Shown piece by piece: positions 6,746 to 59,195 of a stretch of DNA of 64,000 nucleotides. Under the pieces are notes generated by a model. That model searched no databases. It was not told the DNA's origin and saw only the letters and a list, made by a program, of their open reading frames with translations. The position numbers and the translations under genes are program-made. Position 1 is the stretch's first letter. Every line of letters begins with the position of its first letter. This stretch comes from Branchiostoma floridae (lineage: Eukaryota > Chordata > Leptocardii > Amphioxiformes > Branchiostomatidae), in contig NC_049990.1 of NCBI RefSeq assembly GCF_000003815.2, positions 495,827 through 559,826 on the forward strand. Reading direction: 5' to 3'.

Positions 6746-9700
6746 GTAGGTATGACGAAAGGGAACGACGCATTCATGATTTTTTTTCATGACTGTACTT
6801 AGAATCTTTGTGTTGGTTTTATGTTCATGGTTTTGGTGATGACTGCTTCACCATGAACTTAACAACCGTCGCAAAGATTTTTGTTTCTATACAGTACAGT
6901 GGTGAGTGTGAACTGTGATTATCTCTCCAGTTTGTCCCGACTGCAAAATGAAAAACTTCAAACAGTAGTACTGAAAATTGAGTGTATTTGTAGGAACTGA
7001 ATTTGAAGCAAGGTGTTATCTACTATAGCCTACTACTAGTGTAGTTTCTGATTTCTGTGTAAAGAGCTTTTAGCAGGAATTGGATGGTTTAATCGTGTGC
7101 TTTATTCTACAGTTGATTTCTGTGTTAATGGCGTTTATCAGGAATTGTTTTCAGAATGCTTTATCTTATAGTGTCTTGTATCTTGTGATGACTTTGTGCA
7201 AGCTCGCTTGAGTGAGTGAGTGTATCAGGAATTGTAGTTAGAATGCTGTGCTTTGTTCTACAGTTGATTCTGTGTTAAAGTTGTACATCAGGAATTGTTG
7301 TTAGAATGCCGTGTGCTTGACTCCGTAGTGTATTTTATCAGGGATTGTTGTTCAAATGCCGTGTACTTGACTCCTTAGTGTATTTAATCAGGGATTGTTG
7401 TTCGATTGCCGTGTACTTGACTCCGTACTGTATTTTATCAGGAATTGTTGTTCGAATGCCGTGTGCTTTATTTGATAGTGTATTTTATCAGGGATTGTTG
7501 TTAGAATGCCGTGTACTTGACTCCGTAGTGTCCAGCCGTTTGAAGCAAGCCTGCTTCCCTTTTCCAGTGACATGGGGGAGTTTTTCCAGCAGATGGAAGG
7601 GAACGTACGGAACGTCAGTAACGATCACAGCTACAGCCAGCATTCCGTAAGCAATCCTGGAATGTCTGAATCTCTTTTTACACAACCAGTGGTTTATTCA
7701 TACTGACGTTTCGGTGACCGTCTGTCACCTTCTTCAGGGCAATTCTGACTGGTTCACATTGTACTGCAGGACAGGTGTCGCTGCTCACAGTTCAGATGCG
7801 GTCACAAAAAGTATTTACATATGTACAGTCAAATTTATGCAAATTATTTACAATGTTGTCCCAAACCCAAACCCAAAACGTCCATAACTGTTGTCAATGA
7901 ACCATTGGTTGTGTAAAAAGAGTCTCTTTAGTCAGTGATGTACCAACCTGATGAAACTATTCATGAATCCTGGAATGTCTGTTTGTGTGGACTAGGCCAG
8001 ACTTTACGTTGTATGATGGCTATGGCCGAGGAAAAAAATGTGTTTCCTATTTCAGGCATGGCAAGGTTTGGTTTATCAGGCCCTGTTCATAATGCAAAAA
8101 ATCAACGTTTCTATCTATTTGACCTGACAGCAAATGGTTTGCATTTTGCGTTTACAAGCAAACCATTCCAGCTCCTTGAAAAGGCATGAAGGGCTCGAAA
8201 TACTGGGTGCACCCAAAATTGGAGCTGTGCACCCAATTGTTTTCTGTGGGTGCACAGGGTGCACCCAAATATTTCTCACATTTATGTATGTAAAGATATT
8301 AAAGTATACTAATATACATCATATTCTTGACATCTAAGTGTTAGAAAGATAATAAAAATGTCTGCCATGGTACTTTTTTAAGAATTTGAAGCTTGTAATT
8401 AAGTTTTATTATTAGGTTATTACTTGAATTTAAGTGGTGCACCTAATCCCAGAAATGAATTTCGAGCCCTGGCATGGTAATGTGACCTGATGCATCTTTT
8501 CTGTACCCTACAGGACCAGTCTGATCAGGGGTCAGAAACTACAGCGATGGAGGGTCAGCAGACGGACAGGGTAGGTCTGGGGTGTTGTTTGTTTTTTTGC
8601 TTGCTTGTTTGCTTGTTTATTATCAGAAGGCAAAGGTAAGTCTGCGGTGTTGTTTGTTTACTTGTTTATTAGCAGCAGGACATATAGTAGATCTGCGGTG
8701 TTGTTTGTTTGCTTATTTACTTGTTTATTTTAGCCTGTGCCAGTGGCCCCTCAGCGACCTCTAACCATTCCCCCCTCCTGTACCCCAAAGTGACCTCCAG
8801 CCTGCCAACCTGTCAGTGACCTCTAACCTTTACCCCCTCCTGTACCCCCAGGTGACCTCCAGCGTGACCTCCGGCCCCTCAGCGACCTCCTCAGACGTCC
8901 CGTCCACCACAGTGTACCCGGGACCCTACAGCTTCCAGGTGGCCTTCCCCCCTCAGACGCTCAAACCCAAGTCTAAGAAGCTGGCCTGGACCTGGTCGGA
9001 ACCCTGCAAGATGCTGTATGCTGACTTCAACAAGGTGAAACTCCTTAGTCTGGACTTTAAGTCTTAAAGATTTTGGGACTGGCTAAATCCTAGATACTAC
9101 ATAAGCAAATGTTTCATGAATGTGATGATGTGAGAGTAATATCCTGATGTAGAGGCCTTTTTGATTTGAAACTTCATTGTTCTGCACAGGGAAGGTGTTT
9201 GTTGAACTTCTGTCTGGATTGTCTCCAGTTTTTCTACTTGAAAATTAAATGTCAGATATGTCCCTTCAACTTAATGACAATGTTTAACTCCTCTAAAGAA
9301 GTTCCCCTCCCATCTCTAGTTGTTATATTTAAGAATCTCTCTACCGTCTCCGGATCTGTCCCTTCAAATTAAAGACAATGTTAAACTCCTCTAAAGAAGT
9401 ACCCCTCCCATCTCCAGTTGTTGTAATGAAGACTTTCTCTCCCATCTCCAGTCGTAATTAAGACTCTCTTTCCCATCTCCAGATCTGCCCCTTCAACTTT
9501 AAGACAATGTTAAACCAACTCCCATCTAAAGTTGTTTTTATTAAGACTTTCTCTCCCGTCTCCAGTTGTTGTACTTAAGACTTTCTCTCCCATCTGCAGA
9601 TCTGTCCCTTCAACTTTAAGACGGTGCGCCCCCCTCCCGCTGGCTGCCTGATCCGCGCCATGCCTGTGTACCTGAAACACGAGCACATCGGCCTGCCCGT

Positions 9701-12700
9701 TAAGCGCTGCCCCACGCACCGCGAGAACGACTTCAACAACGCGGACCCGCCGGCACACTTCCTGCACTGCCAGGGGAAAGCTGTGGAGTACCGCGAGGAT
9801 CCCACCACGGGGAGGCACTCCGTCATCATCCCCTACGAGCATCCGCAAGGTTCGTTCTTAGCTTCCCGACAACGTTCTGATTGTTTTAACGAGCTTAACT
9901 ACAGAAGCTATGGATGCTTGCAAGATTTACTTCCTGTTTTAGACATCCCGTATGAACATCGGCAAGGTTTGTTGTTGTTGTAGCTTCCCAAGAAGGTTCT
10001 GTTTTCAGGGCGGTTTGTTGTTTTAACTCAAGCTTACTTTGAGAAGCCGTGGATGGATCCATGTCAGATTCTGTATGTGGGTAGGGGTCAGGAAAACAAA
10101 GGTCAAGTTCAATAAGCAGCTTTCCTAACAGCTTCTTATGGTACTGCAGCAGGACTTGTGTTTTTGAGATTTTGTGTTTTGGACATGCCATGGTCCTGAT
10201 TGAGTGTGAGGCATGTTTATTGTTTGTTGCTTTAAGCTTCTTTTTCATATCGTTATCTCTCTTTCGCATTAGTTGATTAGTTCATGTGTTGCAGTAGAGA
10301 CATTTGTTTATTGTTTGTTTATTATTTGTTTGTTTACAGCGGGTACGGAGTGGTCGACCGTCCTGTACAAGTTCATGTGTCTGAGTGGAGACATTTGTTT
10401 ATTGTTTGTTTGTTTGTTTGTTTATTGTTTGTTTACAGCTGGTACGGAGTGGTCGACCGTCCTGTACAAGTTCATGTGTTGCGGTAGAGACATTTGTTTA
10501 TTGTTTGTTTATTTTTTGTGCTACAGCGGGTACAGAGTGGTCAACCATCTTGTACAAGTTCTTGTGCGGCAGTGGAGACAGTTGTTTATTGTTTGTTTGT
10601 TTGTTTGTGGTTTACAGCCGGTACAGAGTGGNNNNNNNNNNNNNNNNNNNNNNNNNNNNNNNNNNNNNNNNNNNNNNNNNNNNNNNNNNNNNNNNNNNNN
10701 NNNNNNNNNNNNNNNNNNNNNNNNNNNNNNNNNNNNNNNNNNNNNNNNNNNNNNNNNNNNNNNNNNNNNNNNNNNNNNNNNNNNNNNNNNNNNNNNNNNN
10801 NNNNNNNNNNNNNNNNNNNNNNNNNNNNNNNNNNNNNNNNNNNNNNNNNNNNNNNNNNNNNNNNNNNNNNNNNNNNNNNNNNNNNNNNNNNNNNNNNNNN
10901 NNNNNNNNNNNNNNNNNNNNNNNNNNNNNNNNNNNNNNNNNNNNNNNNNNNNNNNNNNNNNNNNNNNNNNNNNNNNNNNNNNNNNNNNNNNNNNNNNNNN
11001 AAGGGGTTTACTGTAGGGGGCTATCTGAGGGGGGCATCCTGAGGGGGGGGGGGGTTCTGTTCTATCAAACCCATATGACAAACCATACTAGCATGTTCTT
11101 ATCCTAATTCATACCGGTAATTTTTTTATTATTCATATTGTATCATTGTCACATTCTATGTATTTCTTTATTATTTATCAATTGTAATCAATTTTTTTAA
11201 GTATAGAGGGGGAGGGTTAGTATAAGCTTTACATGCCTTTTCTACCCTCCTGCACCTGTTTTATCTATTGTTAATCACATCGTGTATCATGTACTTGTGC
11301 ATATAAGTAAACAATATACGACTATGTGTTCCTTTTCCCCCAGTGGCGCAGTCTTGGGTCGTCAGGCCGTGAATATCAAGATCTGCTCCTGTCCCGGACG
11401 AGACCGAGAACAAGACGAGGACGCGCTCCTTCCGCAGCCCGCACCTGGGTCGAAGAAACGGCTGATGACAGGTAACGTCTGAGAAACATCCGAGGAGATT
11501 TTCAATGTCTTGTTCCTTTGTGAAGGCACTTCAAGAAAATGGTGACAGGTGGCCACTAGAGTACCTGGGATTTTTAGTGCTGGGAAAGATAATCTAAAGC
11601 ACCACCGAAATGCAAAACAGAAAAAATATATAACTGCAAAAATGGTCACATGTACAGGTTTTGCTCAGGAAATACAAATGTTCAGTCCATTTCACACAAA
11701 CCCTCAGGCATGTCACTGATTTATCTTCCTGAGTCTTGAAGTCTCCCTGACAATGTGACACGCCTTTCTTCTCCCAGACTCCAAGACGTCTCAGAAGAAA
11801 CGTAAGAAGACCAGCGTCACCAGCAGTAGCAACGGCGTGGCGCATGACGGGGAGGTTTTTAATGTTCACTGGCAGGTAAGATTACACAAACAAACAAATA
11901 GACAAAAAACAAGAAAACAATATTGGGTCAGGCAGACAAAATATTTCAGCAAAACAAGAGTCCAACAGTTGCAGAAGAAGAAAGTGAAATGAACTGAATT
12001 GAAAATTGAATGTTTGAGGAACATGTGATATGACTTGGCACTAAGTGCAGTAATTTTTTGTATCATTTGAATTTTCCAGAGGTTTTGTTTATTGGTATTG
12101 TTCCATGTTTATTTTATGCAGAGAACCAGAGTTTATTTTGTATGGACATTCCATGTTTATTTTGTGCAGAGGCTCTGTTTATTTTAAGCAGAGCTCCCAA
12201 GTTTATCTTGTGCAGAGGCTCTGTGTTTATTTTAAGCTGAGTATGCGAGCTTATTTTGTACGGAGGTTCCATGTTTATTTTGTCCGTTTCAGATCCGCGG
12301 CAGAAAGAACTATGAGACACTGCTGCGGGTGAAGGAAGCTCTGGAGGTGCAACACCGGTGTGAGACTGACCCGCAGGTCACAGCACTGTGAGTGGAGTCT
12401 TTCTTGAGGGTTTGCATGGGGGGGTCCTGAAAACACTTATGCTAAATTCAGGAGGCTCACAAATGTGTTATGCTAAAAGTGAGAAACGCAATTAATTACT
12501 CAAAATTTGGCCACTTCACATTGAGTTGTAGGGAAAAGATTATCATAGGAAAGTAGAGCTGGTTGGCTTCGTCTTACATGGAAGGGCCATGAAGGCTGGC
12601 TTCCTGTCTCCTGCACAAAACATCAAAACAGATCCTGAATTGGAGGACAGGATTTTCTTAGCTAACATGTCATAGTTTTATCTGCTGAGATTTTCACTAG

Positions 12701-14920: not shown

Positions 14921-15153
14921 ATTTTTACATTTTGTTTGTACACATGTACTTGACAGTCTTTTATTTATACTACCTTGTTGTATTGTGACCAAGGCTTTTT
15001 GTTAAAATATGATTTCTGCGTCAAAGTTTGAAAAATGTATCTTACAAAGTAAGGCTGTAAACTGTACTATGATACTAGCTTTTCCACATATTGTTAAGTT
15101 TAAGTTGAAGATACAAGTTTCTATGTTCATTGTAAGATAGTCTTTATGATATT

Positions 15154-15159
15154 AATAAA
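15154..15159 (+). terminator. Polyadenylation signal AATAAA, p53-family gene
   Basis: Canonical hexamer in an AT-rich 3' UTR about 1.6 kb after the stop; cleavage expected around 15175-15185. Confidence 0.7.
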
Positions 15160-15540: not shown

Positions 15541-15605
15541 GTTAGACATCAAGGTAATAAGATATGCCAAATAGCAGTTACTCTAGCAACTGGATATGTT
15601 TTTAT
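15541..15605. repeat. Dispersed repeat (GTTAGACATCNAGGTAATAAG family)
   Basis: The phrase GACATCAAGGTAATAAGATA then GCAACTGGATATG recurs at 23392-23510 and, inverted, at 28640-28705. Confidence 0.6.
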
Positions 15606-15812: not shown

Positions 15813-15862
15813 ATGGCGCATGTGACTGGCGATTGGAACCCGCTGGGCCAGGTGTTTTACAG
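15813..15862 (+). CDS. VPS16: VPS16 exon 1
   Basis: ATG at 15813 in GCAAGATGG context. Encodes [17 protein letters not shown], the conserved VPS16 N-terminus. Donor gtcagg. Confidence 0.92.
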
Positions 15863-18800
15863 GTCAGGTATTTCTACACGGCTACGTCACGGGCACAAGC
15901 TGCATGTGAACTTGAGAAGTAGTATCTTAGCTTGTAGGAGAGGTGCTGGAGCTGTTGTTATGTTGCGGGAAAAAAGGTTTTCAGACGGCCTACTTCGGCC
16001 CAAGGCAGACCCACCCTCCCGAACAGATCATCTACAGTGTATGAGACCATGTCTAGGGGAGAAATAGACGTTAAACAAGGACCAGAACAACGGATTTCAC
16101 AGTTGTACAAACAACACAGCACCTGGAAATATATCTTGATAGATAAAGTAAAATATAAGTAAGTGCATGCAACATACTCACTGACTCTAATACTCTGGAA
16201 CTAACGTTACTATTAAGGCCGCCGACTTCGACCGTAGTTGGCATGGTATCAAGGTACTAAAGATGGAAGAATGAATGTGTGTGTGTGTCTGTGTGCATGT
16301 GTGTGTGTGCGAGTCCGTGTGCGTGCGCGAATGTGTGTGCTTGTGTATGTGTGTGTGTGTGAATGTGTGTGTGTGTGTGTGAGTGTATAAATGTGTGTGT
16401 GTGTGTGTTTTGTGGGTTATTATTATCATGACAAATTATCTACACTAGTAATCTGTTACATGCAGGAAGTGCTTTGCCCCACCCTTATTGATCAGTAACT
16501 GTTTTATATTGTCAGGGTAATCTAGTATCTACACTTGTGAATCTCTTATTTCTACATGTAGATATCAGGTATATATTCCCCCACCCGATGATCAGTTTAT
16601 ACTGTTCTGAAAGCTGAATTTCCCGTTTCTGACACCAGGAAGCAGGAGATCTACTCCATGGGATGGCGCGACATCGACCTGGACAAGTTCGTGGTCGCCG
16701 CGGCGCCGTACGGCGGGCCGATCGCGCTGATACGGGACGAGACTAAGCTGGTGCGCGTACAAGGCAGCATCCGCCCTGTTATCTACATCTACACTTCCTC
16801 TGGCAGGGAGATCTCATCTATACGGGTAAGGGGAGGGAGGGAGGGAGTTTGGGGGAGTGAGTGAGTGAGTGAGTGAGTGAGTGAGTGAGAGACAAAGCTG
16901 GTGCGCGTACAGGGCAGCATTCGCCCTGCCATCTACATCTACACCTCCTCTGGCAGGGAGATCTCGTCTATACGGGTAAGGGGAGCGAGTGAGTGAGAGA
17001 CGAAGCTGGTGCGCGTACAAGACAGCATCCTCTGACAAGGATAAAATTCTGATGGGCCAGGGATGCTGTGGCCTAGTGGAACAGTAGTGATGTGATGAAC
17101 TCTGACCTGTTTCCATATTTGCCCAGTGGAACAGTGGTCATATGATGAACTTTAACCTGTTTCCTTATTGCACAGTGGAACAGCGGCCATGTGATGAACT
17201 CTGACCTGTTTCCTTATTTGTCCAGTGGCCATGTGATGAACTCTGACCTTATTCCTTATTTGCCCAGTAGAACAGTGGCCATGTGATGACCTCTGACCTT
17301 ACTCCTTATTTGCACAGTGGAACAGTGGCCATGTGATGACCTCTGACCTGTTTCCTTATTTGATGTGGCCATGTGATGAACTCTGAACTCTGACCTGTTT
17401 CCTTATTTGTCCAGTGGAACAGTGGCCATGTGATCCACCTGGGCTGGTCCTGCAGCGAGGAGCTGCTGTGTGTGCAGGAGGATGGCAGCGTTCTCGTCTA
17501 CGACATCTTCGGGCAGTTCAAACGTACCTTCAGCATGGGCACCGTGAGTCGACTCGGTTTATGTCTATGTTTTTTTTTTATAAAGAGGTCTAGAACCCTG
17601 GCTACTTGTGTTGTTGATATCTATCTGTTTTATTTGCCGGGACTTTATTTCGTTGTAGAAGAAAAAATCAGTTTTTACAATGTTTTTGCATTGAGAAAAT
17701 TCTATAGTGCATGTTGAAGTAGTACATGAATTTGCATTGTCAGGAATTTGCAGCGGAGACGTCACATTGAAAACTGATGTTTTTTGCCGTTTCCCTCTGC
17801 AGGAAGCGAAGGAGATGAAGGTGCGAGACTGCCGCATCTTCAACAGCCACCAGGGCACGGGGCTGGCGGTCATGACCAGCTCATACCGCATCTTCATGGT
17901 CAACAACGTGGACGAGCCCCGCATTCGCAGGATGGCCGACGTGCCAGGTAGGGGAACAGCAAGGGGAGATCCTGGGGGTACAAGAACATTGGTGGGAGAT
18001 ACCGAGGGTATGGGAACAGTGGTGGGAGATCCCGAGGGAAAAGGAACGGTGGTTGGAGATCCCGAAGGTGTTGGAACAGTGGTGGAAGATCTGAAGGATA
18101 GGAGAACAGTGGTGGGAGATCTGAAGGGTAGGGGAACAGTGGTGGGAGATCCCGAGAGTGTGGGAACAGTGGTAGGAGATCCCGAGGGAACGGGAACAGC
18201 GGTGGGAGATCCAAAGGGTATGGGAACAGTGGTGGGAGATCCCGAAGGTGTGGGAACAGTGGTGGGAGATCCCCAGGGTATGGGAACAGTGGTGGGAGAC
18301 CCGAGGGTATGGGAACAGTGGTGGGAGATCCTGAGGGTATGGGAACAGTGGTGGGAGACCCAATGTTAACTGCAAAATGCATTTTAGAGCTTATGTTGCA
18401 CATTTTAAGCAAGAAAAAAAAGAGAAATTAGTCTTGTGTGTGATTTTCCGTCCCTGCCAGGTCTGGACGCCCCTCCCAGCAGCTGGGTGGTGATCTCCCA
18501 GGACCGACAGTCCCGCGTGCTGCTGGCGCGGGAAAACGATCTGTACCTGCTGGACCACGGCGGGCAGTACTCCAGACAGGTGGGTCTATTTGTCCATTCT
18601 GTTGATGCATGTTTCCCATGGTACCAGAAACCAGACGGGCAAAGGGTCGGGAGGTGAGAGGAAGTACAGTTCAGAGTTAGAAGAATTAGTCATTTATCAA
18701 CCTTGGCTGCCAGACATTCCTGCAGAGGTAGAGGCACACACAGAGATGGCCGCGTGTTTATTTGTTTACTTGTTTATCTGTTGTCCCCAGCTTGCCCCAG

Positions 18801-33526: not shown

Positions 33527-33553
33527 TAGCCCAATGATATCCACAACACCAAG

Positions 33554-36014: not shown

Positions 36015-36332
36015 CTTATCACTTCAACCTCTGCTGTTCCAGCACTGCTGGAAAAAACAACCAATGATCTACTCAAAAGTCTGTTTCAGGAAACTTCTAC
36101 GATTGCCTGGACTACTGGCTACTTCTGAATCTGAAAAGCATTTCATTTTTGTTCGCTTGTTGTTGATGTTCTTCTTATCACTTCAACCTCTGCTGTTCCA
36201 GCACTGCTGGAAAAAACAACCAATGATCTACTCAAAAGTCTGTTTCAGGAAACTTCTACGATTGCCTGGACTACTGGCTACTTCTGAATCTGAAAAGCAT
36301 TTCATTTTTGTTCGCTTGTTGTTGATGTTCTA
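36015..36332. repeat. Perfect 159-bp tandem duplication
   Basis: CTTATCACTTCAACCTCTGC to GTTGTTGATGTTCTT occurs at 36015-36173 and again at 36174-36332. I see no difference between the copies. Confidence 0.93.
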
Positions 36333-38387: not shown

Positions 38388-38418
<31 letters not shown>

Positions 38419-44400: not shown

Positions 44401-47400
44401 ATGAATAAGAAAAGATACTGAAAAGTAATTCTGAAATTCTACTAATAAAGTCAACTTAATTATACATTAACAAGGAAATTGGAAGAGTGTTCCAAAAGAC
44501 TTAATATTGGAAGACATGGAACATTTAGATAACATCAGTTCTAATTTGTCCTTCAAGAAAATTTTGAAGTAAAGAAAAAAGATACTGAAGAATTGTTTTG
44601 CTGCAAATCTACCAATAAAGTCTATGCTATCATAAAGTAAGAAAATTGGAAGACTGTTCCAGAAGACTTTTGATTGGAAGACATGGAACTTTCAGGTATA
44701 AAGCAGTTACAATTTCTCCTCCAGGATAATTCTTAAGTGAAGAAAAAAGAAGAGTAGTTTTGCCGATGATGTTTTATCAGGTGAGGACTGGATCTTACCG
44801 TGTCGACGGCCTCAAAGGGCTGGGTCATTTCCTGGTCTTCGTCTACCCCCACCCTGCGGAAAAATGGGGACATGTTAGCTTCTAATAAACAAACAAACAA
44901 ACAAACAAACAAACAAACACAAGGGCTGGGTCAGCTCCTGGTCCTCGTCTACCCCCACCCTGCGGACACATGGGGACAAGTCAGCTTCTCATGAACAAAC
45001 AAACAAACAAACAAACAAACAAACAAACAAACACAAGGGCTGGGTCAGCTCCTGGTCTTCATCTACCCCCACCCCAAGAATGCAAGCAAAGTACTTGTAA
45101 AGTACAAGAACAATCAAACTTTCATTTCCGTTGTGTAAGTCATACAAACAAAGCAACTCTACTGTCAGAGGTAACTAGACAAGCCAACGTTGCCATGGGA
45201 ACGCACCTGATTTTGAGCCAGGTCAGCATCTGGAGGGTCAGGCTGCCACAGAACAGCACCGTAACCATGACGATCATCAGTGTGGTCGTGAACATCAGCT
45301 GTCTCGCCTCCGACGACGTGCTGCGGATCGCCAGCGCGAACGCCACCGCACCCCGTAACCCTGGAAACAACAGAAGTTACCATGGCGACGGTTAGAAGGG
45401 GGTAATTTGACACTGAAACTGCTGTCCCTTGTGCTGAATGACATTCAAACTGACACTGCTGTCCCTGTCTCTGGTGCTGAATGACATTCACACTGACACT
45501 GCTGTCCCTGGTGCTGAATGACATTCACACTGACACTGCTGTCCCTGGTGCTGAATGACATTCACACTGACACTGCTGTCCCTGGTGCTGAATGACATTT
45601 CCACTGACACTGCTGTCTCTGGTGCTGAATGACATTCACACTGACACTGCTGTCTCTGGTGCTGAATGACATTCACACTGACACTGCTGTCTCTGGTGCT
45701 GAATGACATTCACACTGACACTGCTGTCCCTGGTGCTGAATGACATTCACACTGAAACGTGCAACATTTACACTAACCTGAAAACATCATCATATTCTGG
45801 AAGTTGAAGTTGATTTTCTGATGTCGCCCCAGGTTTAGCAGCAGGGTCAAAGGGTAAATGTTACACATCCTGCCCAGTCCGATGGCAAGCTGGGGCAAAG
45901 GTCAAGGAACATGCCAATTGTCTTGTGGGGGGAGACAAGATATAAATTCCTCTACTTTGTTACTATGAAGTTTGAACTCATTTGACAGAATTTTGTTACT
46001 TATATACATGCAAACACCAAACTTATGTACTTAGAATACTGACTTTACAAAGAATATTGTTTTTGATTACTATTCTGTCCATGTCAAATCCTCAATTCTA
46101 TTTGTACTGTCTTTGTCTTTGTCAGCAGGGCTAGCCATTCATAATATTATTGATAGTCTAGTTAGGCTAGGTCTGAACAGTCACATTGGTGAATTGTTAA
46201 ATGAATGAATGAACGAATGAATGAATTAAAAAATTTCAGGCTGTCCTAAAGCTTTCAACTTACTGTATTAAAAGCGATAACAAATTCAGTCATCAACCAA
46301 ACTATCAATCAATCGATCAATTAATCAACCTATTGATTGGTTGCATTAGCTGGTGTGTTACGCCAATGGGTAGTTATATTGGCTATATGGATACAGATAC
46401 AGAATCAATGGATCAATTAATCGACCACTGTAAGGATACGAAAGCGGCTGAGATGAACCCGCCCTTCCACTGGTGGTGCTGGAAGGTGAAGACGGACACG
46501 CCCATGTAGGAGAAGATGAAGTTCTCAGCCAGGAAGTTAAGGAGCTCGAACAGCTGCTTGGTGCGCGCCTTGGACTCCTCCGACAGGTTGTTGTAGGTGT
46601 AGTGGGCCTGGGTGATGCCGCAGAACAGAACAGCCACAATTCCTGCAGAGAGGTAAATAAGGGGTGATGCCGCAGAATAGAACAGCCACAATCTCTGCAG
46701 AGATACCGCAGAATGAAAAAGCCACTATTTGTCCAGAAGGAAGTGTTCTCCCCAAGAGCGCCCTGCTGTAGCACCCCCTGTAATATCTGCTATAGCACCC
46801 CCTACTCACCAGTCATGCCCAAAGCTTCTGCCATTTGGAAGGTGCTATAATATAAAACATTAGGTAGAACATACACATCTCAAGAAGAGAGTATTCTCCT
46901 CAAGACCCCCCTGCAGCCCCCCCTGTAGTACCCCCCCCCTACTCACCCGTCATGCCCAGTGCTTCTGCCATGAGGAAGGTGCTGTAAGACATCAGGAAGA
47001 ACATACACGTCTCCAGAAGGGGGTGTTCATCCCAAGACCCCCCTGTACACCCCCCCCTGTAGTACCCCCCCTACTCACCAGTCATGCCCAGTGCCTCTGC
47101 CATGAGGAAGGTGCTGTAAGACATCAGGAAGAACATACACGTCTCCAGAAGGGGGTGTTCATCCCAAGACCCCCCTGCAGCCCCTCCCCCTGTAGTACCC
47201 CCCCTGCAGTACCCCCCTACTCACCTGTCATGCCCAGTGCCTCTGCCATGAGGAAGGTGCTGTAAGACATCAGGAAGAACATACACGTCTCCAGAAGGGG
47301 GTGTTCATCCCAAGACCCCCCTGCAGCCCCTCCCCCTGTAGTACCCCCCCTGCAGTACCCCCCTACTCACCTGTCATGCCCAGTGCTTCTGCCATGAGGA

Positions 47401-50400
47401 AGGTGCTGTAAGACATCAGGAAGAACGTGCACGTCTCCAGTAAGGGGTGTTCATCCCAAGACCCCCCTGCAGACCCCCCGCCCCTTGTAGTACCCCCCTA
47501 CTCACCAGTCATGCCCAGTGCCTCTGCCATGAGGAAGGTACTGTAAGACATCAGGAAGAACATACACGTCTCCAGAAGGGGGTGTTCTCTGATCTTGGTG
47601 AATTTGGTAAGGTGAGGGAGGGAGTTAAGGAGAATGGACTGAAGTGAACAGAGACTCTAATTCAACAATATAACCTCTGCTAACAAAGCCACATTCTTAT
47701 AAGAACATACCTAGATGAAACAAAGGAACAAATAGAATTGTACCGCTACAAAACAAGTTTTTTTTTTGTAACTACTTCCCAATTTTTACATTTATCTCTG
47801 CAATAATGTGTATGTGGCTTTGAATGGCACAATTTATAGGTTTGTGAGCAAAACATGTATAATTTTGTTCTTGGGGCTTAATTTTTTTTTTAAGTCAAAA
47901 AAGGCAATTCCGAGAAGCAACAAATAAAATTGGTGTTGCCTAACAACTGATAAACAAACAAACAAACAAACAAGCGGCTGTGAGTAAGGATATGACAGCG
48001 GTGAAGCAGCCCATGACGGCTCCTATCCCGAAGGATCCTGCGAAGATGCCCAGGAAGTTCCCGAAGGCCGTCAGGAAGGCGATGCCGTCGAACGCCTTGG
48101 TCGTCTTCCCGTAGCCTTCCACCGTTCTGTGTTAAACAAAGGGGAAAATAAACAAACAATTAACGCATGGTCATCTTACCGTAGCCTTCCACCGTTCTGT
48201 GTTACACAGGAGGAAAAAGAAACAAACGATTAACCAAGGATTGATGTATTCAAACCAGGGCTCTAGCCAGCGTCCGTTTTTCCGTCAATTGACGGAAATT
48301 TGCTGCATGTGACGGAAAATTTTTAAAACCAATCCGTCAACCTTGATGGACAAAAATCTTTGGTGGAAGCTGCAGGGGGCTTGGGGATGCCGTAAAAGCC
48401 ACACACTGTTTGTTTTACTATTGTTATGATTGTTGACAATGTGTGTCGGCGCCCTTTCGCATATGATAATCTCATTAAAAACCCGTTTTTCAAGGTCTCA
48501 GTTCAGTCTCTCTAACTCATGGAACAGTGTTTTCGCGACAATGGGAATTGGCTGACGGAAAAAAATTTTGAGCTGGCTAGAGCCCTGATTCAAACAGTCG
48601 TACTTTTCTTAAAACCAAGTACAGTACTTAGGAGCATGTTTACTAGATAGCTTCAAACAACATTTGCAGATAGATGTGCAAAGGTTTGGTGTGATAAGTC
48701 GTTCAGTGTAATATAACCAGCTGCTGCCACGCCACTTGCCTCCAAAGCTGGTGTTTTATGCCAAAGGGGAGTTATACTGGCTACACAAAGACACAAAATG
48801 AAACTGTGCATTTTTCACTGGTCATAAGGAGAAGGACAGTCACAATTACTGTGACTTATTCTTCCACCAGTCTTTAGAGGAGATTGAAATATGTAGAAAA
48901 GAAAGATAAATGTTCCATCCAATGCTTATATGACTTTTGTAATATAATATAAAAATCAATTAAATGATATCATTATATATGACAAGATAATTGATATGTT
49001 TTAAGCTATGTATAAGAGGCACAATTTAGGCCTGACTGCAATGTACGTATCTTTTATCAAACGGCTTACCGGTCGCAAAGACACTCTACCCACTCCTGAA
49101 ACTTTGCTGTACATCTAGATAGATAAAATGAGCATGAAGTGGTTGGACTTACGAGGACAGAATGATGGCCACGGCGTCGTTCATGACGCTCTCTCCGAAC
49201 ACAAGCGCGTACAGGTCCACATCCACGTGCATGTCGTGAAAGATGGCCAGCACCGTCACTGCAACACAGACAAGGGAACTCATTAACGAGGGGAACTCAT
49301 TAACGAGGGGGAACTCATTAACGAGGGGAACTCATTAACGGGGGGAACTCATTAACAAGGGGAACTCATTAGAACACGAGCGCGTATAGGTCCACATCTA
49401 CATGCATGTCGTGAAAGATGGCCAGCATCGTCACTGCAACACAGACAAGGGGACTCATTAACGAGGGAACTCATTAACGAGGGGGAACTCATTAACGAGG
49501 GGAACTCATTAACGGGGGGAACTCATTAACAAGGGGAACTCATTAGAACACGAGCGCGTATAGGTCCACATCTACGTGCATGTCGTGGAAGATGGCCAGC
49601 ATCGTCACTGCAACACAGACAAGGGGAACTCATTAACGAGGGGAACTCATTAACGAGGGGAACTCATTAATCAGGGGAACTCATTAATGAGGAGACTCAT
49701 TAGAACACGAGCGCGTACAGGTCCACGTCTACGTGCATGTCGTGGAAGATGGCCAGCATCGTCACTGCAACACAGACAAGGGGATTTAATAACAGAAAGT
49801 ACAGTAAGCACATCATTACTGGACAGCTATCAACAACATTCACAGTCAGAAGTGAAAAGGTTGGGCGTGACGGGTCCTTTAGGGTAATATAACCAGCAGA
49901 CATTGACTGACCAATCACAGACATCATGTGACACTGACTGACCAATCACAGACATCATATGACATTGACTGGCCAATCACAGACATCATGTGACATTGCC
50001 TGACCAATCACAGACATCATGTGACATTGCCTGACCAATCACAGACATCACGTGACATTGCCTGACCAATCACAGACATCATGTGACATTGACTGACCAA
50101 TCACAGACATCATGTGACATTGACTGACCAATCACAGGCATCGTGTGACATTGCCTGACCAATCACAGACATCATGTGACATTGCCTGACCAATCACAGA
50201 CATCATGTGACATTGCCTGACTAATCACAGACATCATGTGACATTGCCTGACCAATCACAGACATCATGTGACATTGACTGACCAATCACAGACATCATG
50301 TGACACTGACTGACCAATCACAGACATCATATGACATTGACTGACCAATCACAGACATCATGTGGCATTGACTGACCAATCACAGAGATCGTGTGACCTG

Positions 50401-53400
50401 GACTGACCAATCACAGACAACTCACCAGGGTCAGTGGCTGAGATGACAGCACCAAAGAAGAGGCAGTCGACGAATGAGAAATCTATCTCTGCGGCTGCAC
50501 CAATCAGCACGAAGGCATACATCACAGACCTGGGAGGGGAGAATTTGCATTATGATCATGCACATCACATTACAGTGATATCATGTAATTGATTCATTAA
50601 TACCAAAACTAACAAGCATAATTTAGATAAACAAGGGTATATGTATGCAAAAATACAATCTAGAGGTCGAAGAGTAGACATTTATTTTGACTTATTTTTC
50701 CCCAAACTATCACACTATGTTGTCATCTTTTCCAGTTAATATTTCCTATGCACCACTATTTTCTCCTTAATCACATCCAGGACTGATAGTGATAAGATGT
50801 GCCATGCCCATATTAGGCAGTGCCAGCCCCTGGGGGGTTATGGGAAGTGTTCCAGGAATTGCCAATGTTCTGCAGTGCAGCAGATTCCGGGACACATGCC
50901 AGGAAACATGCCAGGAAACATGCAGGCTTGGTGGGGGGGATGGAAGGGAATCTCGATTTCTGTCACTTCCACTTTGATAGATTTTTCAATGTGCAAGATT
51001 TTGATATTTTTTTTCTACTTTTTACAGTCATGGCATCAAGCACTGGTCAACACAGAAACATTGAGTGAATGATAAAATATTTCCATTTCTGGAAGTGGAA
51101 GTACGGAAAAAAATGTAGTCTAAATTTCGGGCAAATTAAAAGTTGGTTCGGCAAGTAGATTCGGCAAGTAGATTCTTAATGTATTTTCCCAATAGGACTA
51201 GACTTGGTGAATTTTAGAAAACTTGTCCAGCCCTGTGCACTATACGTGTGTGTAGCAGTAAGGAAGATGATGATGATGATGACTCACCCGACGATGAAAG
51301 TGGACACGGCCGTTCCCAGGAACGCATAGGTCAGGATTCCGCCGATGTTGCGGAAAAAATGTCTCTGTAACGCAGGGAGAAGTGTAGTCAGTAAGCATGC
51401 TTTTAGCCAAGTTGGCGTTTACGCGTCATTTGGATGCACTAAAATAACAGGAAATTCGACGCACTACACACCCTTACACTGGGGAGCAGATCCTCTGACA
51501 AGCATCAAATTCTGATTGACCAGGAATGCTAATGAGTCAATTGTGGTCAGTCTTCTACTGTGATCTCTCTGACAGTAATTTTGCCCCTCAGGATACCTTA
51601 TAATGCACCATTTTAACTTAAAATTCTCAACAACTCCTACAATAGTCAAGCCATATCACTTGCTTAAAAGTAGCTAAAGGTATCTCCACGACAATGTCAT
51701 TTATAGAAAAAAAGTCAGGCTTGTTTGGAATCATCCAAGACAATGACCTTCACCCTATGCCCTTGACCCCATGCCCTTGACCTTGACCCCATGCCCTTGA
51801 CCAATGACCTTGACCCCATGCCCTTGACCCCATGCCCTTGACCCCACGATCTCCCTACCTTCTTCAGCGAGTAGCCTGCGTGGAAGATGATAGGCGGCAG
51901 CAGGATGTTGAAGAATATTTCTGGGTCAAAGGTCGCCTGCGGAAGGGAAACACAACAGTGGGCATAAAATACTGCAAGCATCTCATGTCAAACATGTACC
52001 GAAAATTATACCACTTTAGGGTTCTCTCGTCTCGGGTGGGTCGTTAAATGGAGGTCCCGTGTTTGAGGAGAGCCACACCTCCCGCACATTAAAGAACCCA
52101 CCATACTTATCGAAAAGAGTAGGGGTCCTTCCCGGTTTGAGAGGATCAACCCTACAGTTCTATGGCCGCACCTGGGGCAATGACTGTCGTATTGAGGTCA
52201 CCTGAGTTTGTGCCGAATGCCAGCCGCTCCAGACCCTTGTTATTTAACCCTGTCTATTGTAAGTTGGTGTTTAACATCTGAAGCTGATTTAGAGGTGATG
52301 CGCCTAACTTGGGGGCCCAAACATGCATCACTTCTTCTTCCTTACATCACAAGCTACCTGCCACTAAAAAATGGAAGTTCTGCTGCAGTACCAAGGTCAC
52401 AAACCTGGGGGCACAAAGCCAACTTGACCTTTGTCCAACCCCTATCCACATACCAAATATCATCGTAATCCATCAAGAGGTTCTTGAGTTATGCTGACTA
52501 CAAAAATCCAGACACATTGACACATACAGACACGCAGACACAGACACACGAAAAACAATATCTCCATTTTCATGGCAGTAACAACTTTAAGTATAATGTC
52601 CAAACCTTGCATGTACTTTGAACTTTGAACTGTGCACAAACCTTGCTGAGTTCAGGGTTCACGACCTGCACCTGGTGCTCCTGGTACGGGCCCTGGTTGG
52701 AGAACAGGTATTCTCCCGCGCTCACGTTCAGCACGATGTTGGCGGGAGGCTCCCCATCGATGCTGCTGACCGGGACGATTTGCGAAACCGGCTTCTGCGG
52801 AACGACTTCATTACTTGTGTAGCGAATGATGACTCCGACGATCAGGCCTACAACAAAGTAATAATTACAGAATATGCTTTATTAATGGTGATTATGAATA
52901 AACAAACTTGCTGGGGGAACAAGAGTGGAATTGAGCATAAAAGTTCACTTGTGTTGGTAGGTACTAATAACTTAGTACGGCCTCCGGTGATACGGGATAC
53001 ACAGTGTTATATTCTATAATATGTAGTGCAAACATATGACTACATGAGATGTATAACAATGTGTGTACATGGAAGGTTCTAAAATCATTGATTTCTGCTC
53101 TGTATGGAGATTTCAGAGTAAAAGATATATCTATTGGCATTTCTTTCATTTGTATAATTGTAATCTAATGTTATACCTGTTATTGCTATTTCTGTGAACA
53201 TCTCTGTTAACTACACATCTATCAGCAATGAAGTCATGTCTTATACTGGTATCTACACTAGGGGTGTACTGTTACAAAACCGTTTTTTCTTTGTGGAGTT
53301 GTCCAGAAAAAACGGACCTGAAGAAATCAGTGGACCGGATGTTGGACCGATTCGAAAATGAGCAGATTATACCGCCAGGCGTCCAAGAAAATAACAAGAA

Positions 53401-55006: not shown

Positions 55007-55371
55007 CTTACTTCCCTCTAACCGCGCGGCATCATGGGGGATGGAGAGACGTCACCTGGACCGCAAGGAGCAGACAAACTTTTTCAGACTGGAAGTGAAA
55101 GTTGTTCTGCGTCTTCTGGGGGCCACAGACATCTTCAAGGCGGTACTTGTGTGGTCAGAAAGACATTTTCTGCCTTCAGTGGTGGAGGAAAGGCAAGCTC
55201 GCAGTTCGTTCGATATGATTCTGCCCTTGCAAACGTGTTGAGAGAGAGAGCAACATCACCACGCCCCCCTCCCCACTAACCTGGAAACCTAGAAAACATC
55301 ACCAAGTGTAGAGACTGGTCACCCAAAGCCAAACCTCCTTGGTTAAGACGTTGTTTAAGACACTGTCTAAG
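55007..55371. promoter_or_regulatory. Shared head-to-head promoter of exchanger and ASCC1
   Basis: Only 365 bp separate the two start codons on opposite strands. The block is GC-rich near the exchanger, with a YY1-like GCCGCCATCTT (54999-55009), ETS-like CTTCC and an ACGTCAC near 55048. No TATA box. Confidence 0.7.
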
Positions 55372-55780
55372 ATGGATGTCCTCCGCCCTGAGCTCCTCTG
55401 GATCGACGGCAGATGCTACAGGAAGAATTTCCTGTCAGACTCCCCGCTGGAGACCGGTCCAGATGACATGGAGGATGAGGATGAAGAAGATGATGTTGCC
55501 ATGACTACCGGATGCAGGGACATGTATGCTGATGAGTCATGTGACATCGTGCCGCTCCAGAAGACAGATAGGGGGTACAAGTTGACCCTTGACCTTCCCA
55601 GCGACCTCTACAAGTTCATCATCGGCAAGAAAGGGGAGACGAAGAAACGTCTTGAGCGGGAGACGAAGACTCAGGTGCAGATTCCCAAGGTCGGGGCGGG
55701 CGGAGAGGTCGTGATCACCGGGACAGACAGACAGGGGGTGATGTCCGCCATGAGGAGGGTTCAGATACTGGCGGACTCAG
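55372..55780 (+). CDS. ASCC1: ASCC1 exon 1
   Basis: Encodes MDVLRPELLWIDGRCYRKNF, an acidic linker (EDEDEEDD) and the KH domain LYKFIIGKKGETKKRLERE. Donor gtatta after a split codon. Confidence 0.97.
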
Positions 55781-58700
55781 GTATTAAAGAAGGAGTTTAG
55801 GGGGTGTCTGTATGCAGGGTGGGGGGGGGTTGTGTGCTGGNNNNNNNNNNNNNNNNNNNNNNNNNNNNNNNNNNNNNNNNNNNNNNNNNNNNNNNNNNNN
55901 NNNNNNNNNNNNNNNNNNNNNNNNNNNNNNNNNNNNNNNNNNNNNNNNNNNNNNNNNNNNNNNNNNNNNNNNNNNNNNNNNNNNNNNNNNNNNNNNNNNN
56001 NNNNNNNNNNNNNNNNNNNNNNNNNNNNNNNNNNNNNNNNNNNNNNNNNNNNNNNNNNNNNNNNNNNNNNNNNNNNNNNNNNNNNNNNNNNNNNNNNNNN
56101 NNNNNNNNNNNNNNNNNNNNNNNNNNNNNNNNNNNNNNNNNNNNNNNNNNNNNNNNNNNNNNNNNNNNNNNNNNNNNNNNNNNNNNNNNNNNNNNNNNNN
56201 NNNNNNNNNNNNNNNNNNNNNNNNNNNNNNNNNNNNNNNNNNNNNNNNNNNNNNNNNNNNNNNNNNNNNNNNNNNNNNNNNNNNNNNNNNNNNNNNNNNN
56301 NNNNNNNNNNNNNNNNNNNNNNNNNNNNNNNNNNNNNNNNNNNNNNNNNNNNNNNNNNNNNNNNNNNNNNNNNNNNNNNNNNNNNNNNNNNNNNNNNNNN
56401 NNNNNNNNNNNNNNNNNNNNNGTGTGTGCGTGTCTGGCATCACTGGGACAAACCCATTGCTGTTTTCCAGGAAAACAAACCCATTGCTGTTCTCCAGGAA
56501 ACAAACCCATTGCTGTTTTCCTGGAAACAAACCCATTGCTGTTCTCCAGCAAACAAACCCATTGCTTTCTTCCAGGAAAACAAACTCATTGCTGTTCTCC
56601 AGCAAACAAACCCATTGCTTTCTTCCAGAAAAACAAACTCATTGCAGTTCTCCAAGAATACAAAAAAATTGTTGATGTTTTCCAAAAAAACAAACGCAAA
56701 ATTGATGTTTCCTATTTTCCAGGAAGAGCCAAGCTGCCCTTCACCCACTTCCTGTCGTTTCCCCTGATGGCCACGCCCATCAAGAAAGGCTTCCAGGAGT
56801 TCAAGTCCAACGTGCTGTCAGAGTGTGGGCAAGACCAAGGTCAGTGTATAAAGCACTGGTCTACAGGTACTTTCGGTGCCGCTGAAGTGTCACCTTCCAC
56901 CATTGATATCTTTTCATCATACCATTACTCCCTCCCTCACTCACTCACTCACTCACCATTACTAGTAGGTTCTCCTCTCACTGACATCATTATAGTTACA
57001 CTGTTCAAATACTGGCCTCAGTGTTATTCTACAGTGACAGCTTCTTTCCATCAACTGCAAAATTATGGAACTCAAGTTGTTGAAGAGGTTCATCAGTCAC
57101 GTATGTTTAACTTACTATCAATTTTCTTAGAACAATGACTGTTTACTAAAGGTAGAGAACGTACCTCCAAATTTTCGATGTCTGTCAGTACATCTTGGAC
57201 GCGGAGAATGGTCTAGTCTCTATCTCAGGTTGTTGTTGTTTTCTATTCCATTACCCCAGGTATAGATGCCAGTATATTCCAGAACCCGGACAAACTCCAC
57301 CTGACCCTGACGACCCTCGTCCTGCTGACCGATAAGGAAGTGGCGGCGGCGGAGCGCGTCTTGAAGGAGTGTCGTGATGACATCATCGCTCCGCTCCTCG
57401 AGGGAAGCCCGCTTCAGGTCGACGTACGTGGGGTCGAGTACATGAACGATGACCCGGCCGCGGTGGACGTTCTGTACGCACAGGTCCGTGTGTGTTCTAT
57501 TCTATTCTCTTCTATTCTGTTCTGTTCTATTCTATTCTGTTATATTCTATTCTATTCTGTTGTATTCTATTCTATCTATTCTATTCCATTCCATTCTATT
57601 CTATTCTATCCTATTTATCAATTGTTTGGCTGTTCAGCACACACGGCCAGGGTTGCCCAACTAGCCTGTGGCTATTACAGAGGGCTAGCCCTGCTGATAG
57701 ACAAGGACCATACAAATTGAATTTGGATAATTCTAATCTATTCTATATTTACTGACTGACTATATTTACGGACCAAACTTGCTTTAGAGGCTCCCAGTTA
57801 GGTATCAGGTGCATGGTAGTGCAGCCTTTGATTTAGAATGACTCCTGTGGTCTGGATCATAGATGAAACTTTTGAATACTTTCAAGAAAACTGACAAATT
57901 CTGCTTCTGTGCTGTTTTTATGTCAGTGCAGACCAGGGCTCTAGCCAGCTCGAATTTTTTTTCCGTCAGCCAATTCCCATTGTAGCGAAAACCGCAAAAA
58001 CACTATTCCAGGAGCTAGAAAGACTGAACTGAGACCTTGAAAGACTAGTTTTTAATGAGATTATCGTATGCGAAAGGGCGCCGACACACATCGTCAACAA
58101 TAAAAACAATAGCAAAACAAACAGTGTGTGGCTTTTACTGCCGTGGACGGCGTCCCCAATCAGCATGTAGCTTCCACCAAGGATTTTTGTCCGTCAAGGT
58201 TGACGGATTGGTTTTAAAATTTTTCCGTCAGACGCAGCAAATTTCCGTCAATTGACGGAAAAACGGACGCTGGCTAGACCCCTGATAAGCTGTCTGTAAC
58301 TTATGATCCACTGTTCATCAGGACACGTTTGCTATCTGCACGATGTGATGAGTCAGAAGCAGTGGATTGTTTATTCCTTGATGATGACTGGAGTTGATCT
58401 GTCAAACATTTTGGTCCAATTATTTATGTCAGCAATTTCATTAGATAAAATTTGTCAAATTTGATCTTGAATTTTGTCTGTATTCTCGCTGGATCAAAGA
58501 TGAAACTTCTGAATACTTCTGAAATTTCAAAGGTGAACTTTCAAGTAGAGGACTATGACAAATTTGGCTTCTGTGCTGTTTATGTCAGTGCAGACTGCCC
58601 TAATCATCTCCTCTCATCTGAAGCCCCAGACTGTAACCTGATATGTCCGTTCTGTCCTGAGTCCCAGACTGTAACCTGATATGTCCGTTCTGTCCTGAGT

Positions 58701-59195
58701 CCCAGACTGTAACCTGATATGTCCGTTCTGTCCTGAGTCCCAGACTGTAACCTGATATGTCCGTTCTGTCCTGAGTCCCAGACTGTAACCTGATATGTCC
58801 GTTCTGTCCTGACGTTTGTTTCTCATGTTGCACAGGTGCATCTGCAAGACGGATCAGACAAGCTGCAGACCATCGCTGACGGGATCGTGGAGAAGTTCGT
58901 TAGCGCGGGACTAACGGAGCGAGAGTACGACCGCGTCAAACTCCACGCCACCGCCATGAATACGCTATTCCGCAGAGACCCGAGCGCCAGCCCCGACAAA
59001 ACCGACAGAAAGGCTGCTGGGAAGGGGCGGCCGCTCAAGGACAGGGAGTCTTTCGATGCTCGTAACGTCTTGGAGATCTTCGGGGACTTTCACTTTGGCA
59101 AGACGGATTTGAACTCGATACACCTGTCCGAGAGGTTTTCCTCGGACAGTAAGACGGGATATTATAACTGCGCAGCGTTTGTAGAACTCACATGA
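55372..59195 (+). CDS. ASCC1: ASCC1, activating signal cointegrator 1 complex subunit 1 (gene, four exons)
   Basis: Nuclear subunit of the ASC-1 complex (with TRIP4, ASCC2 and ASCC3), acting in transcription coactivation and control of the ASCC3 helicase in alkylation-damage response. Exons 55372-55780, 56723-56839, 57260-57483, 58836-59195 join in phase to 1110 nt (369 residues), close to the usual 350-400. N-terminal MDVLRPELLWIDGR is the family signature; a KH domain (about residues 70-135) has the GxxG loop IIGKKGE. The C-terminal two thirds is a 2H phosphoesterase-like domain with HLT (KLHLTL) and HAT (VKLHATAMNTLF) as the two H-x-T motifs. Start chosen as the conserved methionine. The exchanger is divergently transcribed upstream. 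Confidence 0.96.
55841..56421. other. Assembly gap (581 N)
   Basis: Run of N in ASCC1 intron 1. The protein appears complete without it. Confidence 1.
56440..56722 (+). repeat. 27-bp acceptor-like array before ASCC1 exon 2
   Basis: About nine units of GTTTTCCAGGAAACAAACCC ATTGCT; most contain a ttctccag or ttttccag GAA, like the real acceptor ttttccag|GAAGAGCC. Confidence 0.9.
56723..56839 (+). CDS. ASCC1: ASCC1 exon 2
   Basis: Encodes RAKLPFTHFLSFPLMATPIK and FQEFKSNVLSECGQDQ. FTHFLSF is conserved in the family. Donor gtcagt. Confidence 0.96.
57260..57483 (+). CDS. ASCC1: ASCC1 exon 3
   Basis: Encodes IDASIFQNPDKLHLTLTTLV and VRGVEYMNDDPAAVDVLYAQ, containing the first H-x-T motif. Acceptor cccag, donor gtccgt. 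Confidence 0.97.
57490..57620. repeat. TTCTA pentanucleotide microsatellite
   Basis: Imperfect (TTCTA)n of about 125 bp beginning seven bases after the exon 3 donor. Confidence 0.95.
57934..58285. mobile_element. hAT-like MITE, second copy, opposite orientation
   Basis: Starts CAGGGCTCTAGCCAGC and ends GCTGGCTAGACCCCTG. Its interior is the reverse complement of the 48256-48587 element (for example the phrase GGGCGCCGACACACATYGTC). No target duplication remains. Confidence 0.9.
58610..58825. repeat. 38-bp minisatellite before ASCC1 exon 4
   Basis: Five units of CCCAGACTGTAACCTGATAT GTCCGTTCTGTCCTGAGT. They are nearly identical. Confidence 0.95.
58836..59195 (+). CDS. ASCC1: ASCC1 exon 4 (terminal)
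   Basis: Encodes VHLQDGSDKLQTIADGIVEK, DRVKLHATAMNTLFRRD (second H-x-T motif) and ends GYYNCAAFVELT, then TGA. Acceptor tgcacag. Confidence 0.97.
   Translation: MHLQDGSDKLQTIADGIVEKFVSAGLTEREYDRVKLHATAMNTLFRRDPSASPDKTDRKAAGKGRPLKDRESFDARNVLEIFGDFHFGKTDLNSIHLSERFSSDSKTGYYNCAAFVELT

What the first reader, a model, noticed from the sequence alone, without database searches (positions are those of the whole stretch)
9245..58825. Exon-border tandem arrays at many junctions in all four genes
At least fifteen arrays have a repeat unit that spans a splice site and part of the adjoining exon, with only one complete exon per array. Both acceptor-side (p53-family, VPS16 exons 3, 6, 8, 19, 22, exchanger exons 6, 12, ASCC1 exon 2) and donor-side (VPS16 exons 2, 10, 17, 19, 20, exchanger exon 8) cases occur. 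I recall amphioxus Adh minisatellites of this sort being called mirage minisatellites; the density here suggests a genome-wide process seeded at splice junctions. Random tandem duplication would hit introns at large, not junctions.
Basis: partly seen in the sequence, partly recalled or inferred. Interest (0 to 1): 0.9.

Follow-up and report, generated by a model that had tools for sequence, protein, structure and literature searches.

The report
Amphioxus splice-border ("mirage") repeat arrays
In this stretch of amphioxus genome many genes carry tandem repeats that copy the edge of an exon together with its splice site, more often than random duplication of small pieces would give, and the extra copies look like recent offshoots of working exons.

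Summary
The window is Branchiostoma floridae (p53-family, VPS16, SLC9A6-type exchanger, ASCC1). I mapped 92 splice junctions. p53 has two (exons 5, 6), and five more were found: 20 of 36 genic arrays.

Whether this beats chance depends on the null. Repeat units dropped at random into array-collapsed genes: 6.5 expected. Uncurated TRF arrays: 13 of 38 against 5.7, P=0.0016. Whole arrays shifted: 19 touch a junction against 16.9 (not enriched), but 19 against 8.2 hold exactly one and none holds a whole exon.

The kind is known: amphioxus "mirages". Added here: local statistics; AAAC/TTTG tracts, of which all six outside arrays lie within 32 bp of a junction; 76 of 78 decoy splice sites intact; decoy exon pieces that differ from the real exon mainly at third codon positions (99 of 131), beyond simple neutral decay.

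Most likely: microhomology duplication from short repeats beside exons, with arrays renewed from the functional copy. The genome-wide claim is untested; the own-genome search did not complete.

The parts
8751..8863 (+). p53 exon 4 acceptor (8852): diverged duplicate, offset 62, 12 exonic bp
   Evidence: by-eye view
9255..9622 (+). p53 exon 5 acceptor (9600) array, unit ~98/117, 23 exonic bp
10279..10631 (+). p53 exon 6 acceptor array, unit ~88-99, with TTTG/TTTA tracts; the true last copy lies in the N gap 10632-11000
16739..17030 (+). VPS16 exon 2 donor (16825) array, offset 150
17071..17434 (+). VPS16 exon 3 acceptor (17415) array, unit 50
18738..19006 (+). VPS16 exon 6 acceptor (18963) array, unit ~84, TTTG tract
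20119..20879 (+). VPS16 exon 8 acceptor (20778) array, unit 145-154, 102 exonic bp, 9-bp satellite on the intron side
21795..21927 (+). VPS16 exon 10 acceptor (21913) duplicate, offset 90, TTTG tract
21984..22567 (+). VPS16 exon 10 donor (22038) array, unit ~101 with nested 11-mer
22848..23066 (+). VPS16 exon 11 donor (22886) duplicate, offset 172
26345..27100 (+). VPS16 exon 17 donor (26394) array, unit 82, AAAC-type tract; decoys carry AG before and GT after the exon piece
29071..29473 (+). VPS16 exon 19 acceptor (29373) array, unit 115-119, AAAC tract
29526..29980 (+). VPS16 exon 19 donor (29542) array, 33-bp unit, 12 decoy donors
30739..31636 (+). VPS16 exon 20 donor (30759) array, 40-bp unit, 20 decoy donors
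32112..32848 (+). VPS16 exon 22 acceptor (32776) array, unit ~112, TTTG tract; a predicted isoform (P0001) reads into a decoy copy
44815..45074 (-). exchanger exon 12 acceptor (44853) array, unit ~110, TTTG (sense) tract
46610..46703 (-). exchanger exon 9 acceptor (46642) duplicate, offset 52
46798..47587 (-). exchanger exon 8 donor (47506) array, unit ~146, nested 14-mer
48098..48234 (-). exchanger exon 7 acceptor (48126) duplicate, offset 70
49197..49784 (-). exchanger exon 6 acceptor (49258) array, unit ~174, nested 17-mer
17947..18363 (+). intronic array, 30-bp unit, starting at the exon 4 donor of VPS16 (counted as not spanning)
25458..25560 (+). intronic array, 19-bp unit, ending 3 bp before VPS16 exon 15
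49899..50419 (-). intronic array, 31-bp unit, 7 bp from the exchanger exon 5 donor
56448..56664 (+). ASCC1 intron array ending 59 bp before exon 2 (56723): not junction-spanning
19092..19125 (+). TTTG tract outside arrays beside the VPS16 exon 6 donor (others: 11886-11898, 24204-24224, 25966-25978, 28167-28181, 47952-47973)

Best explanation
These are mirage minisatellites, in unusual local density. Step 1 (inferred): a short tandem tract on the intron side of an exon, AAAC/TTTG or another 9-17-mer, mispairs with a few matching bases inside the neighbouring exon during replication or break repair, and the piece between the two, which contains the splice site, is duplicated in tandem. Step 2 (inferred): unequal exchange between alleles grows and trims the array; the copy next to the exon body stays the functional one, and former functional copies become decoys. 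Step 3 (shown): only one exon body remains per array, decoys keep splice dinucleotides, and their exonic pieces differ from the real exon mostly by synonymous changes, as expected if they were functional until recently or are often renewed from functional copies. Step 4 (inferred): splicing chooses the copy joined to the exon body by position and exon definition, with occasional leakage into decoys.
For: Unit-level enrichment: 20 of 36 against 6.5, and with uncurated TRF 13 of 38 against 5.7, P=0.0016; arrays spanning or within 25 bp 28 of 36 against 10.0. Tracts: the six pure AAAC/TTTG tracts outside arrays lie 10-32 bp from a junction, where 8.7% of non-array intron bases lie within 32 bp (threshold chosen after seeing the data); most other microsatellite types are not so placed; 7 of 20 junction arrays and 0 of 16 others hold a TTTR/YAAA tract. 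Seams read by eye: the exon piece runs straight into the tract in p53 exon 6, VPS16 exons 6, 17, 19 and exchanger exon 12; in VPS16 exon 8 the exonic end ACACCTTGTCC resembles the 9-mer satellite ACACCTGTC. Decoys: 76 of 78 keep AG or GT/GC and 52 of 78 score at least as high as the real site (32 of the 52 come from two arrays). Coding signature: differences at codon positions 1, 2, 3 = 16, 16, 99; distinct changes 66 synonymous of 106 scorable, 0.62 against 0.28 under a neutral spectrum, 0 of 1000 simulations as high; changes private to one decoy in arrays with 3 or more decoys 0.47 against 0.26, 0 of 1000; per base 2.6%, 2.4%, 12.9% at the three positions and 18.5% in the adjoining intron. 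Independent assembly: isoform X3 P0001, on a 22-Mb contig, ends [16 protein letters not shown] and matches a decoy copy of exon 22.
Against: No coverage peak at junctions in base-level counts. Whole-array shift gives no excess of arrays touching a junction, 19 against 16.9. Among arrays of 90% or more match only 6 of 15 span, against 2.5, P=0.02, and short-unit arrays show no clear excess, 2 of 13 against 0.8. 13 of 20 junction arrays have no AAAC/TTTG-type tract. Decoys also carry 38 amino-acid changes and 2 stops among 108 distinct changes, so many do decay. Unit lengths and array limits of the 36 were set by hand. Microhomology was judged by eye, without a control.
Confidence: 0.55

Rival explanations
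1. Uniform tandem duplication plus purifying selection: duplications strike anywhere in genes; those inside or around whole exons are purged, those ending just inside an exon survive because splicing uses one copy. Dense exons do the rest.
For: No array holds a whole exon (0 of 36; 8.7 expected on shifting); whole arrays touch junctions no more often than shifted ones; exon bases are covered less (9.1%) than introns (29.7%).
Against: The unit-level null already excludes purely exonic and whole-exon units and still gives 6.5 against 20 and 5.7 against 13. Purging cannot explain why arrays that avoid exons also hug them: 8 of the 16 others lie within 25 bp.
Confidence: 0.2
2. The splice site or its transcription-coupled process itself (polymerase pausing, R-loops, nucleosomes on exons) is the hotspot, without need of a tract.
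For: Both donors and acceptors are hit, and 13 of 20 junction arrays lack an AAAC/TTTG-type tract.
Against: 7 of 20 junction arrays but 0 of 16 others carry the tract, and several seams run into it (by eye). No data on transcription or chromatin here.
Confidence: 0.17
3. Decoys are functional alternative exon edges, kept by selection for alternative protein ends or in-frame inserts.
For: Third-position bias of decoy differences; a predicted isoform that ends in a decoy copy.
Against: 24 amino-acid changes and 2 stops among 49 private changes in arrays with 3 or more decoys; most decoys are dead ends; no transcript was seen here.
Confidence: 0.05
4. Assembly artefact: alleles of a highly heterozygous animal laid end to end.
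For: Three of four N gaps lie beside arrays; some pairs are only two copies.
Against: Up to about 22 copies of 40 bp; both donor and acceptor sides; a model from another, long-contig assembly ends in a decoy copy.
Confidence: 0.03

Closest known systems
Mirage minisatellites of amphioxus: globin genes BflGb6 and BflGb9 (PMC3087553)
   Same: Tandem copies of intron-exon borders, 5' or 3' side, one authentic copy, many units with AG/GT; units 81-100% alike with concerted evolution; copy number differs between two haplotypes (passages read).
   Different: One or two arrays per gene reported there; here 20 in about 50 kb and tested against chance. The authors stress intron gain; no new intron was identified here.
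Lancelet PGBD5 repeats (PMC3902484)
   Same: 60- and 108-bp tandem repeats overlapping 5' and 3' splice sites, proteins still normal (passage read).
   Different: Few, imperfect copies in one gene.
Adh3 minisatellites of amphioxus (paper not held; known through PMC3087553)
   Same: The case for which the name was coined, 10-72 bp units, somatic instability, according to the citing passage.
   Different: Instability could not be tested here.
Intron gain by tandem duplication of proto-splice sites (idea of Rogers, cited in PMC3087553; PMC4974935 seen only as a search listing)
   Same: Duplicated AG/GT sites give raw material; decoys of VPS16 exon 17 carry AG before and GT after an exon piece.
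   Different: No intron position created by an array was shown here.

Membership tests
mirage minisatellite | tandem unit spans an exon-intron border and part of the exon | tested here: met
   20 of 36 genic arrays; for p53 exon 6 only decoy copies are visible
mirage minisatellite | a single complete exon, the other copies partial | tested here: met
   0 of 36 arrays contain two junctions
mirage minisatellite | either the 5' or the 3' border may be duplicated | tested here: met
   13 acceptor and 7 donor arrays, counted from the list with p53 exon 6 added
mirage minisatellite | normal splicing in spite of the copies | tested here: inconclusive
   Database proteins (e.g. P0002, P0010) carry each exon once, but P0001 ends in a decoy copy; no RNA data
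mirage minisatellite | length instability, between haplotypes and in the soma | not testable with these tools
   one assembly only
mirage minisatellite | amphioxus | tested here: met
   B. floridae proteins match exon by exon
whole-exon tandem duplication (alternative exon clusters) | unit holds a whole exon with both splice sites | tested here: not met
   0 of 36
introner-like dispersed intron elements | the same sequence at many loci | not tested
   genome search did not complete; within the window only the AAAC/TTTG tract recurs

The most novel reading that the evidence does not exclude
Amphioxus exon edges are continually copied into the neighbouring intron: a short tandem tract beside a junction repeatedly pairs with the exon, and unequal exchange between alleles moves functional edges into decoy positions and decoys back into use. 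Decoys would then be a reservoir of recently proven splice sites, present at a sizeable share of junctions genome-wide (about one in five here), which would explain their coding signature.
Probability: 0.35. Interest if true: 0.8.

Novelty: new member of a known kind. Interest (0 to 1): 0.6.

Why it matters
If the excess holds genome-wide, amphioxus offers a natural experiment on how the spliceosome picks one site among up to about 20 equally good neighbours, and on how splice-border duplication feeds intron gain. The coding signature in decoys suggests turnover faster than neutral decay, which long reads from families can measure directly. It also warns that gene models in this animal can pick decoy copies.

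Tried and rejected
Base-coverage test: arrays cover 29.7% of intron, 9.1% of exon and 6.4% of intergenic bases and there is no peak at junctions. Taken alone this speaks against junction seeding; I do not rest on it because array growth adds intron bases while the junction stays single, so the duplicated unit is the fairer count. Whole-array shifts are told as the conservative control.

Splice-site function of the TTTG tract in RNA: not favoured, because the tract occurs in both orientations relative to the gene.

ASCC1 exon 2 as a junction array: rejected (59 bp short). The curated list dropped 4 intergenic clusters and 2 microsatellites (16276-16408, 57493-57575) from the 42, set units by hand and lengthened some arrays by TRF limits; TRF-only arrays such as 8601-8719, 28408-28507 and 40040-40166, none of which spans a junction, are left out of it and are included. 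In one search the line labelled 'drop 6' in fact drops 7 arrays (36 to 29). In some searches short exon pieces, e.g. p53 exon 4 with 12 bp, give uncertain decoys; one search uses 13 arrays with 29 or more exonic bp. The intron phase control was not clean (0.139, 0.244, 0.175 by distance mod 3) and I lean on the simulations instead. Exon numbers printed are by listed order, so VPS16 numbers after exon 13 and p53 numbers after exon 5 are one lower there than in this report., 47 literature searches found no genome-wide test.
Full report
What the window is. Proteins assembled from the window's reading frames match Branchiostoma entries: VPS16, a sodium/hydrogen exchanger of the SLC9A6 type, a p53-family protein, and ASCC1 by comparison with solved human-type structures. 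Exon by exon the B. floridae entries P0008, P0124 and P0241 fit best, and P0008 even contains an intron-derived stretch found in this window. Genes: p53 + 6648-13548, VPS16 + 15813-32920, exchanger - 55006-36964, ASCC1 + 55372-59194. N gaps lie at 4602-4701, 10632-11000, 24751-25351 and 55841-56421.

Exon borders. Spliced comparison gave 92 junctions. Three are not GT or AG: VPS16 exon 11 has a GC donor, and intron 7 of the exchanger has AT...AC ends. VPS16 exon 14 and p53 exon 6 are in gaps. VPS16 exon 9 does not read in one frame in this assembly, so its borders are the least certain.

Arrays. TRF lists 122 rows. An ungapped offset scan of offsets 15-500 gave 42 clusters and none in one simulated sequence of the same dinucleotide make-up. 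I dropped 4 intergenic clusters and 2 microsatellites, leaving 36 genic arrays, with units set by hand. 20 of these have a unit that spans a junction: 13 acceptors and 7 donors.

Chance. (a) Each array is shrunk to one unit, genes are collapsed accordingly, and units are dropped at random, leaving out purely exonic places and places with two junctions: 6.5 of 36 expected, 20 seen, none of 200,000 simulations as high (first run). Subsets: without p53 exon 6, 19 of 35 against 6.3; TRF-reported only, 15 of 29 against 4.7; match 90% or more, 6 of 15 against 2.5 (P=0.02); units of 50 bp or more, 18 of 23 against 5.7; under 50 bp, 2 of 13 against 0.8 (P=0.18); p53 3 of 5 against 0.8 (P=0.028); VPS16 12 of 16 against 3.4; exchanger 5 of 13 against 2.2 (P=0.044); ASCC1 0 of 2. 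(b) The same with TRF arrays and no hand curation: 13 of 38 against 5.7, P=0.0016 with the best-scoring period (five thresholds, P 0.0006-0.0016). (c) Whole arrays shifted: 19 touch a junction against 16.9 (P=0.25), 19 hold exactly one against 8.2 (P=0.0008), none holds two or more against 8.7, and total junctions covered are fewer, 19 against 27.0. (d) Base coverage: 29.7% of intron, 9.1% of exon, 6.4% of intergenic bases, 13 of 92 junctions, no peak at the junction. I read this as a real bias of duplication towards exon edges together with loss of whole-exon duplications. The window came to me because of the pattern, so P values are somewhat flattered.

Arrays that do not span a junction hug exons too: 8 of the 16 lie within 25 bp, making 28 of 36 against 10.0 expected.

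A tract beside junctions. Pure AAAC/TTTG tracts of 12 bp or more: 22 in introns, 1 intergenic. The 6 outside arrays lie 10, 12, 17, 17, 26 and 32 bp from a junction, five at donors and one at an acceptor; 8.7% of non-array intron bases are within 32 bp, a limit set after seeing the data. AC, C and most other microsatellites are not so placed. With a looser TTTR pattern 5 of 6 lie within 30 bp, P=2.1e-5, the sixth at 94 bp. The tract occurs in both orientations relative to the gene. 7 of 20 junction arrays and 0 of 16 others contain such a tract (one-sided P about 0.009 by my own arithmetic). In five of those seven the exon-derived piece runs straight into the tract, by eye. Other arrays have nested short satellites of 9-17 bp on the intron side; in VPS16 exon 8 the exonic limit resembles the satellite unit (by eye). 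This suggests microhomology-driven duplication between a short tandem tract and the exon, which would enclose the splice site because the tract is so near.

Decoy splice sites. In 19 arrays, 78 decoy sites were found; 76 keep AG or GT/GC, and 52 score at least as well as the real site on a matrix built from this window's junctions, the real sites included; 32 of the 52 are from the exon 19 and exon 20 donor arrays of VPS16. So the sequence of the site alone does not tell the real copy from decoys; position and exon definition presumably do (inference).

Coding signature of decoys. In 13 arrays, differences between real and decoy exon pieces fall at codon positions 1, 2, 3 as 16, 16, 99 of 131, a change shared by several decoys being counted for each. 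Counting distinct changes in 19 arrays: 15, 18, 75 of 108; of 106 scorable, 66 synonymous, 38 amino-acid changes and 2 stops, 0.62 synonymous against 0.28 under a neutral spectrum, 0 of 1000 simulations. Part of this would come from the constrained real copy, so the telling class is changes private to one decoy in arrays with 3 or more decoys: 23 synonymous of 49, 0.47 against 0.26, 0 of 1000; columns 8, 8, 27. Per base: 2.6%, 2.4%, 12.9%, and 18.5% in the adjoining intron. Decoys that simply decayed after birth should show no codon bias in private changes. The remaining readings are that decoys are often renewed from functional copies of other alleles, or alternate with them; or, less likely, that they are used. 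The mixture with clear amino-acid changes and stops fits renewal better than lasting function.

Decoy use. Isoform X3 P0001 (B. floridae x B. japonicum, 22.2-Mb contig) ends [22 protein letters not shown]; residues 784-818 match a decoy copy of exon 22 here at 100%. It is a predicted model; its RNA support is not visible to me. It does show that the array is present in another assembly. B. lanceolatum P0007 ends IVDMFVYLFICLF, which by eye reads like the same intron sequence after a shorter exon piece.

What is known. [quoted passage not shown] PMC3902484 (passage) adds PGBD5 and cites troponin C. The Adh paper is not held. PMC2632668 and PMC2206037 (passages) mention tandem repeats and intronic partial exons in other amphioxus genes without the name. 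Searches of the held library showed me no genome-wide test of arrays against junctions and no report of the tract; most subscription papers are not held.

Limits. One window of one assembly; the own-genome search was busy. No long reads, no RNA.

Noticed in passing
47612-47993 (- strand): Intron 7 of the exchanger has AT...AC ends with ATATCCTTA at the donor and TTCTCCTTAAC near the acceptor, as in U12-type introns (motif recalled). An older B. floridae protein model (P0124) mis-splices it.
   Followed up: partly
4315-5063: The same 67-aa frame lies on both strands on either side of the 100-N gap at 4602-4701: an inverted repeat, perhaps an assembly palindrome.
   Followed up: no
10632-11000, 24751-25351, 55841-56421: Three of the four N gaps lie 1-45 bp from a tandem array, so arrays seem to break the assembly and hide p53 exon 6 and VPS16 exon 14.
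   Followed up: partly
21535-21609: VPS16 exon 9 does not read in one frame here although database proteins are intact: allele or assembly error.
   Followed up: no
55006-55372: Exchanger and ASCC1 start head to head, start codons about 366 bp apart: a likely shared promoter.
   Followed up: no
29058-30062: A 334-aa frame stays open through the exon 19 acceptor and donor arrays of VPS16, so retention of the 33-bp array would insert in-frame 11-residue repeats.
   Followed up: no
whole window: Tandem arrays cover 29.7% of intron but 6.4% of intergenic bases, an excess in transcribed DNA that I did not test further.
   Followed up: partly
36013-36331: A 159-bp intergenic sequence stands twice in tandem with 100% match.
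   Followed up: no
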